From positions 1 to 23,160 of the IMG/VR virus record IMGVR_UViG_3300037153_000431: a stretch of 23,160 nt of DNA; one strand, written 5' to 3'. The stretch is from a virus. Positions 5,072-18,972 of this stretch are shown piece after piece (the first letter of the stretch is position 1; each line of letters starts with the position of its first letter). The translations under genes and the position numbers were made by a program. Below the pieces are notes generated by a model. It was not told the origin of the DNA. It saw nothing but the letters and a program-made list of their open reading frames with translations, and ran no database searches.

Positions 5072-6067
5072 TCAGGTAATGGGGGTGATTCGCCCTTCGC
5101 CGAGCAGCCGCACGTAGTTCTTGGCCCACTCCCTGGGCTCGACGCCCTGCTCCTCCGCAAGGCGCCGCATCTTGGGTGTCATCACGAAGGTGTTGCCGTT
5201 ACCGCCGCCGCCTCCACCGCCTACGCTTCCGCGCGCCACGGGCGCCGCGCCTGCCATGGTGGGATTGGGAGCACCGCGCTGGGGATTACCCCCACCGCCG
5301 GGTTGCTGTGCCATGATCGACCTCTCGATGTAATCGAAGTATCCGGGGCTGTCCGCCTTGTGGCCCTCATCCAGGGCACGCTCGTGGGCGTCCAAGGCGC
5401 TGCGCTTGATGGTGCCGTCGCTCCGCACGAGTTCCGGGTGCTTGCGCAGGAACTCCTGGGCCGCCGGGGTCTTACCGGCGAGCGCGCGCTCAAACGGGTC
5501 GGTGGGCTGCGCCGGGCGCTGCGGCTGCTGTTGCTGCGGCGGTCGCTGCTGTCGTTGCCGCGCCTCCGCCTCGGCGTTCTGGCGCTGCTGCTGCAGGACC
5601 GCTTGGTCGCGCTCCAGCACAGCGAGATTGCCGCCCAGCCGGCCGATCTCCAGGTTGAGGGCCTGGGCGCGCTTGAAGTCGCCGTCCACCATGGCCTGCT
5701 CGGCGCCATTGGACAGGGCGACCATCTTGTCCTGCACCGCCTTGATCTGGTTCTCGGTGTACAGCTCGTAGGTCGAGACGCCCCTGCGCTCGGCCTCCTG
5801 TGCAAACAGGATCGCCTCGTCGCGCTCACGGGCGATGGTCTGGGCTATCTGGGTGACCCGCACCCGCTCGGCGCGCTCGGCGTTCACCTGCCGGTTCAGC
5901 TCGGCGAGGCCGTCTTGCGCGGCCGGTGGGGGTGATGGGCTGGGGACAGGTGCCGGCTTGTGGTCTCCCGACGAAGCCTGCTGGGTTGTGCCTGGGTTGT
6001 CTTCTTCGTCCAGGTTAACGATCAGGTTCTCGTTCTCCCCGGCGGAGGGATTAACGTCGTCAGCCAT
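5072..6067 (-). CDS. Capsid scaffolding protein
   Basis: The product is 331 residues. An acidic N-terminus (NLIVNLDEEDNPG) and a Pro/Ser-rich linker precede a long alpha-helical coiled-coil segment (about residues 60-185). A glutamine-rich tract follows (about 175-195), then a helical region with DPFERALAGKTPAAQEFLRKHPELV, a glycine-rich linker, and a C-terminal basic helical part (MTPKMRRLAEEQGVEPREWAKNYVRLLGEG). This acidic/coiled-coil/low-complexity build, and its position between portal and capsid genes, is that of phage scaffolds that direct procapsid assembly. The ATG at 6067 follows a GGAGG at 6 bases; an in-frame GTG at 6079 overlaps that ribosome site and was rejected. Confidence 0.75.
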   Translation of the reverse strand: MADDVNPSAGENENLIVNLDEEDNPGTTQQASSGDHKPAPVPSPSPPPAAQDGLAELNRQVNAERAERVRVTQIAQTIARERDEAILFAQEAERRGVSTYELYTENQIKAVQDKMVALSNGAEQAMVDGDFKRAQALNLEIGRLGGNLAVLERDQAVLQQQRQNAEAEARQRQQRPPQQQQPQRPAQPTDPFERALAGKTPAAQEFLRKHPELVRSDGTIKRSALDAHERALDEGHKADSPGYFDYIERSIMAQQPGGGGNPQRGAPNPTMAGAAPVARGSVGGGGGGGNGNTFVMTPKMRRLAEEQGVEPREWAKNYVRLLGEGRITPIT

Positions 6068-12220: not shown

Positions 12221-13924
12221 TCAACGCAACCCTGTTGGTATGGTCAATCCGCCGCCGAAGGCGGGGTACATGGGGGCCGGTGCCGGCCGATACTTCTTCT
12301 CCTCGATGTCATCCAGCTCGTCCTCATCGGGGAGGGTCGCGAGCCCGAGCGCGCGCATGTGGGCGAGCGCCTGGGTCATGGCATCCGCAAGATCATCGTG
12401 GGTGCCCTTGGGCATATCGGCGAGTTCGTTGATCACGCGATCGGCCCAGTCCTTGAACAGGAAGTCGCCCATCCCCGTTGCTTCGGCCGGGGCGTAGATC
12501 ATTCCACACTCAAACAGGTTCTGCTGGGCGTAGGCGCGCGCGACGTGGTCGCCTTCCGGTGTAACGAGCGTCACGCCGAAGTCAGCGCGGTCGGCGGTCT
12601 TTGGGTTGTGGCTGAGCGTGTCGCTGATCACCCGCCCGCGACGGCGCAGCTCCTGCGCCACCGGGTGGCCAGAGGCCTTGTCCTCGATCAGCACCCGGTC
12701 GATCTTGAACTTCTTGGCGGTCTCCTCGATCTTCTTGACCAGCTCGTACAGCTCCAGGCGCTCGGCCCAGGCCCACATAAGGATTAGTCGTCGGTTCTCC
12801 CAGATGTCGCGGCAAACCCCGAGCACCACGCCCGCCGTAGGGTCGTTCTGCTTCTTCTCGGTCTGCGCGGTGTCCAAAGAGAGCACCGTGTAGGACATGA
12901 TGGGAAACTTGGGCCAGGGCACGCCGAACTTGCCGCATTCGGCTTCGGTGTAGGGCCGCCACCAGTTGCGCTGGATTATCCCTCCGCCTCGGGGGGAGGG
13001 GCGCTGCTGGTACTGCCCGGCGTAGGCGAAGCTTCCTTTCTCGCGCTCGATGTTGGCGACGGCTTCGGGCGAGAAGCGCTCTGGCCACGCGAGGTCGCCG
13101 TCCTCGGTGCGCGGGTCCTTCCAACCGAGGGGGTTGTAGGGCTCCCGTCCGGCTTCGAACTCCATCGGCACCATGAGGTGGCAGTAGAGCCAGCCCTGCT
13201 CAAGAATGAATCCAGAGATATCGCTCTGATGAACGCGCTGCATGATGATGATGATGGCAGACTCGTCAAGGTTGTTAAGTCTGTCCGTGATTGTCTCTCT
13301 AAACCATCGCACCGTGTCAGTTCGAACCACGTCTGATTCACTCTTATGAACATCGTGAGGGTCATCGATGACCACGCGATCTCCACGCTCTCCGGTTCCG
13401 ATACCTTTGACCGACGACGCGAACTTCGACCCCGTCTTGTCGTTGGTGATCTTGATCTCACCTTCCTTCTCCAGGTTGAACCTTTCACCCCACAGCTCCT
13501 TGAACCTTTCACTCATGATCAGCTTGCGGAACTTGGTATTGTCACGCTCGGTCAGGCCCGACGAGTACGAGAAGCTCACGTAGCGCAGGTGCGGCATGTC
13601 CATGGCCGACCACTCCCACGCCGGCCAGAACACGTTGACCATGAGACTCTTCATGCTGCCTGGGGGCACGTTGATGAGGAGGCGCGTGATCTTCCCGAAG
13701 GTGACCGCTTCCAGGTGGTCGCAGATCGCGTACAGCAGCCAGCCTTCGACCAGCTTGGTTTCCGGCTCCAGGATGCTCCAGAAGTAGCGCACGAACTCGA
13801 TCAGCCCACCGGCTTTGGCCTGGGCTTTGCGGTTAGCGCGTTTGGCGATCTCAGCCTTGAGCGACTTGAGCGTCTCAAGCGCCTGCGCCTCAGTAATCGG
13901 AAAGCTGTTGGCAGCCTTGGTCAA
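12221..13924 (-). CDS. terL: Terminase large subunit
   Basis: The product is 567 residues. It is the ATP-driven packaging motor and headful or site-specific nuclease that docks on the portal. The ATPase part shows a Walker A-type loop INVPPGSMKS (84-93) and Walker B VVIDDPHD (184-191). The nuclease part has the RNase H-fold acids: SLDTAQ (D351), LIEDKASG (E414/D415) and THDDLADAM (D510/D511). Other family landmarks are GTGERGD (176-182) and YAGQYQQRPSP (301-311). The Walker A loop has SM in place of the usual GK or HGK spacing, which is known in this terminase branch. The ATG overlaps the upstream TGA (ATGA). Full length, no frameshift. Confidence 0.93.
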   Translation of the reverse strand: MTKAANSFPITEAQALETLKSLKAEIAKRANRKAQAKAGGLIEFVRYFWSILEPETKLVEGWLLYAICDHLEAVTFGKITRLLINVPPGSMKSLMVNVFWPAWEWSAMDMPHLRYVSFSYSSGLTERDNTKFRKLIMSERFKELWGERFNLEKEGEIKITNDKTGSKFASSVKGIGTGERGDRVVIDDPHDVHKSESDVVRTDTVRWFRETITDRLNNLDESAIIIIMQRVHQSDISGFILEQGWLYCHLMVPMEFEAGREPYNPLGWKDPRTEDGDLAWPERFSPEAVANIEREKGSFAYAGQYQQRPSPRGGGIIQRNWWRPYTEAECGKFGVPWPKFPIMSYTVLSLDTAQTEKKQNDPTAGVVLGVCRDIWENRRLILMWAWAERLELYELVKKIEETAKKFKIDRVLIEDKASGHPVAQELRRRGRVISDTLSHNPKTADRADFGVTLVTPEGDHVARAYAQQNLFECGMIYAPAEATGMGDFLFKDWADRVINELADMPKGTHDDLADAMTQALAHMRALGLATLPDEDELDDIEEKKYRPAPAPMYPAFGGGLTIPTGLR

Positions 13925-14217
13925 AGCGGCACGCTCCCGAGGTCACCGGGCGCCGGATGGTCCATCGGATACTCTTTCACAACGGGATCGGGCTCATGGT
14001 CGCGCGGCGAGCCGTCCGGGTGGCGCGTGATCGTCACATTGGCCCACATCGCCACCGTGCGCAGCGTGCGCAGGATGTAGGTCTTGTCGGGACCATCGGG
14101 CAGCTCGCGCTCCAGCGTCTTGGCGTAGTCCGCAGCGGCGCTGCGTACGATCACCATGCGATCCTTCTGATCTGCAGTCGGATTGAGATAGCCGAACGTA
14201 GTGTCGTGCAAGCTCAC
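13921..14217 (-). CDS. Small helical-hairpin protein resembling Acb2/Tad1-type nucleotide sponges
   Basis: The product is 98 residues. Residues about 16-67 read as two helices: RMVIVRSAAADYAKTLEREL, then PDGPDKTYILRTLRTV and AMWANVTITRHPDG. The ir.aA..yA..le...P......L..l..avMWAN..I.R layout is that of short phage proteins I associate with the Acb2/Tad1 hairpin family, some of which sequester cyclic nucleotides or cyclic ADP-ribose signals and block CBASS or Thoeris. A proline/aspartate-rich tail (about 68-98) follows. Start ATG; both ends overlap neighbours (ATGA with terminase). Family membership is remembered pattern; sponge activity is inference and many family members are untested. Confidence 0.5.
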   Translation of the reverse strand: MSLHDTTFGYLNPTADQKDRMVIVRSAAADYAKTLERELPDGPDKTYILRTLRTVAMWANVTITRHPDGSPRDHEPDPVVKEYPMDHPAPGDLGSVPL

Positions 14218-16197: not shown

Positions 16198-16461
16198 ATG
16201 AGCACGACAGCCGAGCAAGATCAGGTGCTGGCGCTGGTTGATGCGATCAATCACGTCCTGGCCGGCGTGCCGATCGCGCACGCGCAGACGGCGATGACCC
16301 TGGCCGTCGTTACCGGCATCATCTCCACCAGCACCAGTGCGCAAGAGCGTGAGATGCAGGCTGCGATATTTACCCAGCAGGTGAAGGAGTACATCGCCCG
16401 TCCCGAGATCGTCTCGTGGGTGTTGTCCGGCGTCCGGCCCACGCAAGTGGGGCGGGCATGA
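16198..16461 (+). CDS. Small alpha-helical phage protein, first gene of the TIGR-Tas transcript
   Basis: The product is 87 residues. It has an N-terminal helix (EQDQVLALVDAINHVLAGVP), a hydrophobic alanine/valine/isoleucine-rich middle (AMTLAVVTGII; possibly buried rather than transmembrane) and a charged helical end. It starts at the ATG at 16198; an upstream in-frame TTG at 16162 lies within the promoter. No ribosome site is visible. Its TGA overlaps the next ATG (ATGA). I do not recognise a family. Confidence 0.6.
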   Translation: MSTTAEQDQVLALVDAINHVLAGVPIAHAQTAMTLAVVTGIISTSTSAQEREMQAAIFTQQVKEYIARPEIVSWVLSGVRPTQVGRA

Positions 16462-16751
16462 GCATCATCAGCCCAGAGGAAGCCGACGAGTTCGTGCGCC
16501 TGAAGGCCGAGGTCGAGCAGCTGCGGGCCGACCTAGAGCTGCGCAATCAGACGGCATGTGACCGCAAGGAGATTATCGCGCGGCTTGAATGCGATCTCAC
16601 CGAAGCCGCCGCCTTCCTCGACCGGATGGCGGCACGGCTCGATGCAATGCTTGATGTTGGAGCAACACACGATACCGGCATTGCACCCGATATCGACCGC
16701 GCCGGTGACGAGTGCCGCGCGATGGCGGATAAGATAAGAGCGAGCCATTGA
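16458..16751 (+). CDS. Coiled-coil protein whose 3' end forms the first array repeat
   Basis: The product is 97 residues. Heptad-type FVRLKAEVEQLRADLELRNQ (about 12-31) is followed by IIARLECDLTEAAAFLDRMAARL and IDRAGDECRAMADKIRASH. The second half resembles the 15829-16035 product. ATG at 16458 overlaps the upstream stop; an earlier in-frame ATG at 16416 lies inside that gene. The final codons for RASH coincide with the first GAGCGAGCC repeat (16738-16746) of the TIGR array, so coding sequence and guide array are fused. Whether it has a role in the system is unknown. Confidence 0.65.
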   Translation: MSIISPEEADEFVRLKAEVEQLRADLELRNQTACDRKEIIARLECDLTEAAAFLDRMAARLDAMLDVGATHDTGIAPDIDRAGDECRAMADKIRASH

Positions 16752-17187
16752 GAATGAGCGCACCATCTCCACCGAGCGGGCCATCAGCGATGAGAGCACC
16801 ATCCCATTCGAGCGAGCCGTGCGATGTGAGAGCACCACGTAGAACGAGCGAGCCATCTGATCGGAAGGCACCACGATCCTGGAGCGAGCCAAAGAGGACC
16901 GAGAGCACCATACCGCGCGAGCGAGCCACCTAAAGAGAGCGCACCAGACCCTATGAGCGAGCCAACTGCGGAGAGGGCAACCAAAGGCCAGAGCGAGCCA
17001 CACTGCGAGAGAGCGCCGGAAACCATGAGCGAGCCACAGACCAGGAGTGCACCACTAGCGCAGAGCGAGCCATTGTAAGCGAGGGCACCGTTGCAGCCGA
17101 GCGAGCCATCTAGCCCGAGAGCACCATCCGCAAGCGAGCGAGCCACTCTCGAAGAGAGCGCCACATCAAGAGAGCACCACTGTGAAA
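16738..17187 (+). repeat. TIGR array 1 (36-nt dual-repeat, dual-spacer units), upstream of tas
   Basis: Repeat GAGCGAGCC (R1) occurs at 16738, 16774, 16810, 16846, 16882, 16919, 16955, 16991, 17027, 17063, 17099 and 17136: spacing 36, with two intervals of 37. Halfway between lies a second 9-nt repeat (R2, consensus GAGNGCRCC; e.g. GAGAGCACC, GAGCGCACC, GAGGGCACC). The four slots are R1, 9-nt spacer, R2, 9-nt spacer. R1 is exact in 11 of 12 copies (one GAGCGGGCC); R2 varies. About 24 spacers differ from each other; most begin with A. Two spacers are 10 nt (16891-16900, 17126-17135). The end is degenerate (GAGAGCACC at 17170) and runs into the tas ribosome site. The period equals the 36-nt tigRNA length reported for TIGR-Tas systems. 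The strand is given as that of tas; array transcription was not shown. Confidence 0.9.
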
Positions 17188-17191
17188 GGAG
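17185..17191 (+). promoter_or_regulatory. Ribosome binding site of tas
   Basis: AAAGGAG lies six bases before the ATG at 17198 and directly after the last degenerate array repeat. It fixes the tas start; the frame opening upstream at 17182 is a different, non-coding frame. Confidence 0.75.
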
Positions 17192-17197
17192 CGTCCC

Positions 17198-18004
17198 ATG
17201 GACGAGCAGGTACACGTTGCCAAGCTATCGGTCGATCTGAAGATCGCCGCCGCCACGCTGTCGGACGAGGAGGCGAGGTTTCTGGTCGGGGCGTACTACA
17301 TCATCCAGGAGGACCGCAAACGGTCGAGCAACCAAGTACGCGCCCTCGACAAGAGCGGGGAGCCGCACTTGTTGCTGACGTGGTTTGCCGAGCAGAACGA
17401 ACTCTTGGAGAGCCAGCTCAAGACCGCGCTCGGGCGCTACGCCCAGAGCAAGGAGGTCGGCAAGTGGATGCTGGGCATCTACGGCATCGGCCCGGTGATC
17501 TCGGCTGGTTTGATCGCGCACATCGACATCAAGAAGTGCCCCACCGTCGGCCACATCTGGCGCTTTGCCGGGCTCGACCCGTCGAGCGAGTGGAAGAAGG
17601 GCGAGAAGCGCCCGTGGAATGCCGAACTCAAGACCCTGTGCTGGAAGATCGGCCAGAGCTTCATGAAGTTCTCCAATGCCGAGGACTGCTATTACGGCAA
17701 GCTCTACCGCGAGCGCAAGGCGTTCGAGGTTGCCCGCAACGACAGCGGCGGCAATACCGAGCTTGCGCTGCGCCTGTCGATGAAGTTCAACAAGTCGACC
17801 GAGGCGTTCAAGCATCTGTCTGCGGGGCATCTCCCGCCGGCACAGATCGACGGGCGGGCGCGGCGCTGGGCGGTCAAGCTGTTTCTCTCTCACTTGCACA
17901 GCGTGTGGTGGGAGATCGACACCGGAGAGAAGCCGCCCAAGCCGTACATTCTCACGAAAGAGGGTGGCCACGCGCACGAGATCAGGCCACCGAACTGGAA
18001 GTAG
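17198..18004 (+). CDS. tasA: TIGR-associated Nop-domain protein, nuclease-free (TasA-type)
   Basis: The product is 268 residues. An N-terminal helical part (about 20-90) contains LSDEEARFLVGAYYIIQEDR and the conserved-looking RSSNQVRALDKSGEPH. A helix-hairpin-helix region follows, GIYGIGPVISAGLIAHIDI (93-111), then GHIWRFAGLDPSSEW (118-132) and KRPWNAELKTLCWKIG (137-152). This GIGP..aa.l...id ... faGLdP ... N..LK order is the core of the IS110 C-terminal (Transposase_20) domain, which is homologous to the Nop domain of Tas proteins and box C/D snoRNPs. The C-terminal part (LPPAQIDGRARRWAVKLFLSH, then HAHEIRPPNWK) is also conserved-looking. No RuvC-type DEDD residues upstream and no HNH motif are present, so DNA binding without cutting is expected. 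Arrays flank it in the same orientation on both sides; its last codons fall in phase with array 2. Confidence 0.85.
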   Translation: MDEQVHVAKLSVDLKIAAATLSDEEARFLVGAYYIIQEDRKRSSNQVRALDKSGEPHLLLTWFAEQNELLESQLKTALGRYAQSKEVGKWMLGIYGIGPVISAGLIAHIDIKKCPTVGHIWRFAGLDPSSEWKKGEKRPWNAELKTLCWKIGQSFMKFSNAEDCYYGKLYRERKAFEVARNDSGGNTELALRLSMKFNKSTEAFKHLSAGHLPPAQIDGRARRWAVKLFLSHLHSVWWEIDTGEKPPKPYILTKEGGHAHEIRPPNWK

Positions 18005-18692
18005 CCACGGATCGAAAGTGTGCCAGATGATATGAGCGAGCCAGCGTCGAAGAGAGCGCCGCAACAAGCGAGCGAGCCACGTCACATGAGAGCGCCATCC
18101 GCAGCGAGCGAGCCCAATCTTGGGAGTGTACCAGCATCTCAGAGCGAGCCAGTCGGGCGAAGAGTGCCATGCTCCAGGAGCGAGCCATCATGTCGGAGAG
18201 CGCCAATGTGTCTGAGCGAGCCTGATCTCCTGAGAGCACCAATCTCTGTGAGCGAGCCACGCACCACGAGAGCATCATTCAGAGAGAGCGAGCCCAGAAG
18301 CGGCGAGAGCGCCATTAGGCAGGAGCGAGCCATATCATGGAAGAGCGCCACACGACTTGAGCGAGCCAGTACTGGAGAGGGCATCAAAGACACTGAGCGA
18401 GCCATTCTGGTCGAGGGCACCGAATAGGCCGAGCGAGCCTCGCAAGCGGAGAGCGCCAATCACGAGGAGCGAGCCACGTCAGATGAGGGCACCACGCAGG
18501 TTCGAGTGAGCCATCCGGCCTGAGAGCGCCATATGAAGTGAGCGAGCCGGATGTGGAGAGAGCACCAGACTTGTAGAGCGAGCCAGTCGCCAGGAGAGCG
18601 CCGCTTGTTATGAGCGAGCCACCCACAGAAAGAGCGCCACGGTAGTAGAGCGAGCCATTGGGGTTGAGGGCACCAAACCTGTTGAGCGATCT
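17998..18692 (+). repeat. TIGR array 2, downstream of tas
   Basis: R1 GAGCGAGCC occurs at 18034, 18070, 18106, 18142, 18178, 18214, 18250, 18286, 18323, 18359, 18395, 18431, 18467, 18504, 18540, 18576, 18612 and 18648, then a degenerate GAGCGATCT at 18684. Spacing is 36 with two intervals of 37 (10-nt spacers at 18295-18304 and 18494-18503). R1 is exact in 17 of 18 full copies (one GAGTGAGCC); R2 at the half-way points is GAGAGCGCC, GAGAGCACC, GAGGGCACC, AAGAGCGCC and similar. About 36 unique spacers. In phase upstream, R2-like AAGTGTGCC (18016-18024) and R1-like GAAGTAGCC (17998-18006) carry the periodicity into the tas stop codon. This array is longer than array 1 and has the same orientation. 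Confidence 0.9.
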
Positions 18693-18972
18693 TACCCCTA
18701 AGCTTGCCGATTGGGAGATCACTTGGGAGCCGCGCGAGGGTGGGCGGGCGCCGAGAGTATCTCCCAACCCGGATTATCCGCATGGCAAGCATCTCGACGC
18801 CCACCATCCTGGGCTGCCGAGCTGCCGGGGTGAGCTACCCTATGTGTTGTGGCCCGAGCGCGGGCTGGGATTGCTCTACGTGCGTTGCCGGCGCTGTGGG
18901 GTCACGTCTGCCGTGACCACCGCAGGCCGACCGGACGATCCGATCAGCCTGCGCATCAACTGTGGCGGCTAG
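18682..18972 (+). CDS. Small CxxC protein following the TIGR array
   Basis: The product is about 96 residues if it starts at TTG 18682; the frame is open from 18658. It has ADWEITWEPREGGRAPRV, then SCRGELPYVLWPERGLGLLYV and a single CRRCG (about residue 70), with a final cysteine near the C-terminus. A half zinc-ribbon or hypothetical DNA-associated protein is possible. The start codon lies inside the last degenerate repeat (18684-18692) of array 2. Its stop is two bases from the stop of the convergent 18975 gene. The start is uncertain; function unknown. Confidence 0.5.
   Translation: MSDLTPKLADWEITWEPREGGRAPRVSPNPDYPHGKHLDAHHPGLPSCRGELPYVLWPERGLGLLYVRCRRCGVTSAVTTAGRPDDPISLRINCGG

What the first reader, a model, noticed from the sequence alone, without database searches (positions are those of the whole stretch)
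16738..18692. TIGR-Tas system in a phage: Nop-domain protein flanked by two 36-nt-period guide arrays
Seen directly: about 30 units of R1(9)-spacer(9)-R2(9)-spacer(9) at exactly 36 (rarely 37) bases, both sides of a gene with an IS110 C-terminal/Nop-like domain. Known: TIGR-Tas systems pair such arrays with Nop-domain Tas proteins and give 36-nt tigRNAs that use both spacers to bind double-stranded DNA. Inference: this phage makes a programmable DNA-binding ribonucleoprotein with about 30 dual guides.
Basis: partly seen in the sequence, partly recalled or inferred. Interest (0 to 1): 0.95.

Follow-up and report, generated by a model that had tools for sequence, protein, structure and literature searches.

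The report
Phage TIGR-TasA system, two guide arrays
This phage carries a small RNA-guided DNA-binding system (TIGR-TasA, a kind described in 2025) with about 31 two-part guides; its relatives suggest that new guides arise partly by duplicating and reshuffling half-guides inside the array, which would bear on how such guide libraries grow.

Summary
Confirmed. Two arrays of alternating repeats with a strict 36-nt period flank a Nop-domain gene (17198-18004). There are about 31 units: 11 regular plus 1 irregular upstream, 18 plus 1 with a truncated first edge downstream. A family profile finds TasR (9mty, E 1e-21) and TasH (21kl, E 4e-13). The predicted fold matches TasH/TasR best (Z 18.5-19.8, IS110 about 13), with no nuclease domain, so this is TIGR-TasA: a new member of a published kind. 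The spacers are random-like, not a decayed tandem repeat.

Within arrays, 24 same-side half-spacers recur with an unrelated partner (0.65 expected). Two records of one phage, otherwise identical over 3.8 kb, differ by one 36-nt duplication across the loop repeat, which pairs an old spacer A with an old spacer B. Guides may thus be born inside the array; wholly new spacers also appear. No unit targets carrier phage DNA above chance (1075 units, 1.7 Mb). Targets and biological role remain unknown.

The parts
16738..17197 (+). Upstream TIGR array: 11 regular 36/37-nt units plus one irregular unit; edge GAGCGAGCCA, loop GAGAGCRCCA, 8-nt spacers. The last edge-like repeat (17189-17198, GAGCGTCCCA) overlaps the GGAG before the tasA start and ends on the A of its ATG.
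   Evidence: lag-36 autocorrelation 0.54
17198..18004 (+). tasA: solo Nop-domain protein, 268 aa, no nuclease domain
   Evidence: profile hits to TasR/TasH structures; AF2 pLDDT 86.9; Foldseek top 10 all TasH/TasR; Z 18.5-19.8; phrog_4285 E 8.5e-43
17998..18692 (+). Downstream TIGR array: first, degenerate edge GAAGTAGCCA holds the tasA stop codon TAG; then 18 regular units; ends in a 3'-truncated edge GAGCGATCT at 18684-18692
   Evidence: lag-36 autocorrelation 0.58
16458..16751 (+). Small ORF just upstream; its last codons and stop lie in the first unit of the upstream array
   Evidence: sequence and ORF list; no Pfam or PHROG match

Best explanation
This is a TIGR-TasA system on a tailed phage. 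The two arrays and tasA lie head to tail on one strand and probably form one transcript (inferred). The transcript is cut inside edge repeats into 36-nt tigRNAs, each with an 8-nt spacer A and an 8-nt spacer B (inferred from the family). A TasA dimer binds one tigRNA; spacers A and B pair with opposite strands of a 16-18 bp site, opening and bending it (inferred from TasR/TasH). Lacking a nuclease, the complex most likely blocks transcription or replication of a competing element or a host gene (inferred; targets not found). Array growth, from the relatives: arrays change along their whole length by gain, loss and duplication of units, including duplication out of phase across the loop repeat, which gives new pairs of existing half-spacers. 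Point changes and wholly new spacers add to this; the source of new spacers is unknown. The confidence below is for the identification as a TIGR-TasA system; the blocking role alone I would put at about 0.5.
For: Protein. Array. RNA constraint: edge position 3 pairs with position -3 in 99.2% of adjacent edges against 58.4% if independent (G-C, A-U, U-A), and the last base of box C agrees between edge and loop in 63/63 arrays, as in the TasR structure (PMC12045711). Association: most relatives carry such arrays beside tasA, with different repeat sequences. Stop codon in or touching box C of the first edge in most loci with a downstream array. Array evolution: window and a 90% aa relative share only 4 recognisable units; shared units colinear with changes in between; half-spacer reuse 12+12 vs 0.28+0.37 expected; one-unit out-of-phase duplication, L005 vs L007. 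No self or relative targets.
Against: No RNA data, no identified target, no promoter above chance and no clear terminator after the array. The blocking role is by analogy only. The L005/L007 event comes from metagenome assemblies; a strain mixture or assembly ambiguity in a repeat of about 49 nt cannot be excluded. Out-of-phase pairs inside single arrays are few (2 vs 0.27 expected, maximum 3 in shuffles). In L163/L165 two units were replaced by spacers not seen in the partner array, so recombination of existing halves is not the only source.
Confidence: 0.93

Rival explanations
1. An IS110-like RNA-guided transposase or its remnant: the Nop-like C-terminal domain of a recombinase, with unrelated repeats next to it.
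For: Weak Pfam hit PF02371 (E 7e-4); PHROG 4285 is labelled transposase; IS621/ISCro4 structures match at Z about 13.
Against: The whole 268-aa protein is the Nop part, with no room for a DEDD domain; TasH/TasR match better (Z 18.5-19.8; E 1e-21 vs 4e-4); the 36-nt dual-repeat array travels with the gene.
Confidence: 0.02
2. A decaying tandem repeat (minisatellite) with no guide function, next to a real Tas gene.
For: Units are tandem; some arrays contain near-duplicate units (10 pairs); one close relative differs by a duplication; arrays in some loci are degenerate.
Against: Spacer columns hold about 0 bits while most repeat columns hold 1.4-2; edge positions 3/-3 covary 99.2% vs 58.4%; shared units stay colinear between phages.
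Confidence: 0.02
3. The system regulates the phage's own genes (self-targeting) rather than foreign or host DNA.
For: TasA has no nuclease, so self-binding would be harmless; arrays are in phages.
Against: No unit of 1075 has an exact B+rcA match at gap 0 in 1.68 Mb of carrier DNA; 1-mismatch counts equal re-paired controls (58 vs 42-57); none in the unit's own locus; the window has none with 2 or fewer mismatches in its own record. The window is a fragment, and many carriers were searched only in part.
Confidence: 0.1
4. Arrays grow mainly by capture of foreign DNA, as in CRISPR, and the half-spacer reuse is a by-product of rare recombination.
For: Most units differ between close relatives (about 4 recognisable in window vs L002; L182/L185 97.6% tas nt identity, 5 units shared of 24); novel spacers replace old ones in L163/L165.
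Against: No adaptation gene recognised beside tas in the window; changes not polarised to one end; half-spacers recur with new partners.
Confidence: 0.4

Closest known systems
TIGR-TasA (Flavonifractor plautii FpTIGR; Faure et al. 2025, PMC12045711)
   Same: Solo Nop-domain protein, alternating edge and loop repeats, 36-nt unit, arrays up- and downstream of the gene
   Different: About 31 units (most known arrays have 5 to 15); different repeat sequences (GA...CCA, not the UG...CCA of TasR arrays); 8-nt rather than 9-nt spacers on the 10-nt reading; no clear terminator. FpTasA itself was not compared by sequence here.
TIGR-TasH of Salicola phage CGphi29 (SpTIGR; PDB 21kl, 9w04)
   Same: Nop fold (Z 19.8), detectable sequence homology (tblastn E 5e-7), phage-borne, 36-nt unit with 10-nt repeats and 8-nt spacers, similar AGCGAGCCA edge
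   Different: No HNH nuclease domain in the window protein
TIGR-TasR (PDB 9mty)
   Same: Nop fold (Z 18.6, 29% identity over 195 residues), dual-repeat array, covarying pair in the edge repeat
   Different: No RuvC domain; box motifs differ
IS110 family recombinases (IS621, ISCro4)
   Same: Related Nop-like RNA-binding domain (Z about 13)
   Different: No DEDD catalytic domain here, no bridge RNA seen; has an array instead

Membership tests
TIGR-Tas | Nop-domain protein of the Tas family | tested here: met
   (E 1.1e-21 to TasR, 3.7e-13 to TasH)
TIGR-Tas | Array of two alternating 8-12-nt repeats with short random spacers, unit about 36 nt | tested here: met
TIGR-Tas | Array next to the tas gene, up- and/or downstream | tested here: met
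   most relatives
TIGR-Tas | Box motifs covary between edge and loop; covarying pair inside the edge repeat | tested here: met
   last base 63/63 agree; edge 3/-3 pairs 99.2% vs 58.4% expected
TIGR-Tas | Truncated first and last edge repeats | tested here: met
   downstream array: first edge degenerate over the tasA stop codon, last edge GAGCGATCT
TIGR-Tas | Rho-independent terminator after the array (typical, not essential) | tested here: inconclusive
   only a chance-level candidate at 18827
TIGR-Tas | Processing to 36-nt tigRNAs | not testable with these tools
   no RNA data
TIGR-Tas | Dual-spacer binding of double-stranded DNA | not testable with these tools
   no biochemistry; no target found
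TasA subtype | No nuclease domain | tested here: met
   268 aa, helical model that starts at the coiled coil, no N-terminal nuclease
IS110 transposase | N-terminal DEDD RuvC-like catalytic domain | tested here: not met
   only IS621 residues 125-320 align, to model residues 20-267
CRISPR array | Single 25-36-nt repeat with spacers of similar size, cas genes | tested here: not met
   two alternating 10-nt repeats, 8-nt spacers; no cas gene among the ORFs tested
TIGR stem-loop array | Palindromic stems in place of edge repeats | tested here: not met
   edge repeats GAGCGAGCCA are not palindromic and nearly invariant

The most novel reading that the evidence does not exclude
TIGR arrays are self-diversifying combinatorial guide libraries: out-of-phase duplication at the loop repeat and reassortment of half-spacers, with point change, make new two-part guides inside the array without any capture machinery.
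Probability: 0.4. Interest if true: 0.75.

Novelty: new member of a known kind. Interest (0 to 1): 0.5.

Why it matters
The system itself belongs to a kind published in 2025. What is useful is the comparative set. The discovery paper (PMC12045711) calls the emergence and expansion of these arrays an enigma. Here 352 viral relatives were found (80 kept), and close pairs catch arrays in the act of changing: all along the array, by duplication, with half-spacers reused in new pairs. That gives a concrete, testable account of part of guide birth. It also gives a clean negative: carriers' guides do not hit the carrier DNA searched, which points to host or rival targets.

Tried and rejected
Self and relative targets with four geometries and gaps 0-2, with re-paired controls: chance level. 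Own-chromosome targets for the 39 units of L052: no exact match, both positive-control 18-mers found, one 17/18 match against about 0.3 expected by chance. One conserved unit scanned against all viral contigs: 20 stretches in phages that are mostly unrelated to each other, no informative cluster. Rfam: no match. Promoters and terminators: chance level. Plasmids: no homologue at E 1e-3. A-to-B side exchange of spacers was weak: 4 vs 0.58 expected, where two of the four are a misparse of L138. In-place exchange of a half-spacer at the same array position was not supported as a general rule (6 colinear vs 5.0 expected), although L160/L163 show two cases that look like it.

Full report
What is there. 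The window is a whole IMG/VR viral record of 23160 bases, without end repeats and possibly a fragment. It holds phage genes: large terminase, portal, major head protein and a tail protein. Between 16738 and 18692 two arrays flank a 268-aa gene at 17198-18004. One search reads 30 units; in the 26 with exact spacing the repeats are near-invariant and the spacers are random-like. With the unit that starts on the truncated edge at 17998 the total is about 31.

Anatomy. The edge repeat is GAGCGAGCC followed by A in most copies; the loop repeat is GAGAGC(A/G)CC followed by A in most copies. In relatives that last base is A in both repeats, or G in both, or C in both (63 of 63 arrays), so it belongs to the repeat. 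Repeats are then 10 nt and spacers 8 nt. In edge repeats the third base and the third base from the end are complementary between adjacent edges in 99.2% of 1098 cases against 58.4% if independent, by G-C, A-U and U-A. This parallels the covarying edge pair in the TasR structure (PMC12045711). The edge is the repeat that begins and ends the arrays in truncated form. In most relatives with a downstream array the tas stop codon touches or lies in box C of the first edge (TAGCCA, TAACCA, TGAGCCA). In the window and L002 the last upstream edge-like repeat overlaps the tasA start. That could couple tasA expression to processing; this is an idea, not a result.

The protein. Pfam gives only a weak IS110 hit. 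A profile of 25 relatives finds TasR 9mty at E 1.1e-21 and TasH 21kl at 3.7e-13, then IS621 at 4e-4. The AlphaFold2 model has mean pLDDT 86.9. Foldseek's ten best are all TasH or TasR. The structural aligner gives Z 19.8 to 18.5 for TasH/TasR and about 13 for IS110 recombinases. There is no nuclease domain. By tblastn the only phage records hit are Salicola phage CGphi29, the source of SpTasH, and a Microcystis phage. The anatomy and the protein agree: this is TIGR-TasA.

Relatives. One scan gave 37 viral loci, a profile scan 352 relatives of which 80 were kept, and bacterial genomes 12 loci, among them Halomonas sp. NO4 and an Acidobacteriaceae isolate. Most carry a 36-37-nt array beside the gene; others show a lag-36 signal, and for a few (L048, L201, L202) none was seen.

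How arrays change. Window and L002 (tas 88.5% nt identity) share four recognisable units, one moved from the upstream to the downstream array. L182 and L185 (97.6%) share about 5 of 24. Shared units are colinear, with differences spread in between. In 63 non-redundant arrays (1204 units) exact 8-nt half-spacers recur on the same side with an unrelated partner 24 times (one a misparse) against 0.65 expected; whole-unit near-duplicates occur 10 times against 0. L005 and L007 are identical over 3.8 kb except for one 36-nt insertion, loop-B-edge-A, which makes the new pair CGATCCAC/CTCCAGCA from two old halves. L005 itself holds what looks like an older, diverged event at the same spot. Against a pure recombination account, L163 and L165 differ by two units with spacers new to the pair. 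The library of papers I could search holds no account of how these arrays evolve beyond the open question in the discovery paper; subscription papers were not searched.

Targets. I used target = B + reverse complement of A, the geometry I derived from the published 8-nt 3' overhangs, and three other arrangements. In each, 1075 units show no excess over re-paired controls in 1.68 Mb of carrier DNA, and the B+rcA geometry gives none in a unit's own locus. The window's units have none in its own record. L052's units have no exact match in their own chromosome.

Verdict. The system is a new member of a known kind. The evolution of the arrays is the part worth following.

Noticed in passing
window 13921-14217 (-): Small protein with the Acb2/Tad1 hairpin domain (Pfam PF24729, E 2e-6, just above cut-off), next to the terminase: a candidate anti-CBASS or anti-Thoeris sponge.
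   Followed up: no
L005 6168-6240 and L007 6204: One-unit out-of-phase duplication in an otherwise identical phage.
   Followed up: partly
L009, L017, L038 tas genes: Cysteine-rich insertions in the Nop domain after the GIGP helix, zinc-finger-like; L037 has an insertion of about 60 aa.
   Followed up: no
window 17198-18004: PHROG 4285, which covers the whole protein, is labelled transposase (integration and excision); for this clade the label looks wrong.
   Followed up: partly
L043, upstream of tas (about 5700-6000): Degenerate array in a Halomonas prophage; L186 appears to be the same element in the viral collection.
   Followed up: partly
window 18711-18719 and 18759-18767: Perfect 9-nt inverted repeat TTGGGAGAT/ATCTCCCAA just after the downstream array.
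   Followed up: no
L014, L004: Sub-arrays split over several places, up to kilobases apart, on one strand.
   Followed up: no
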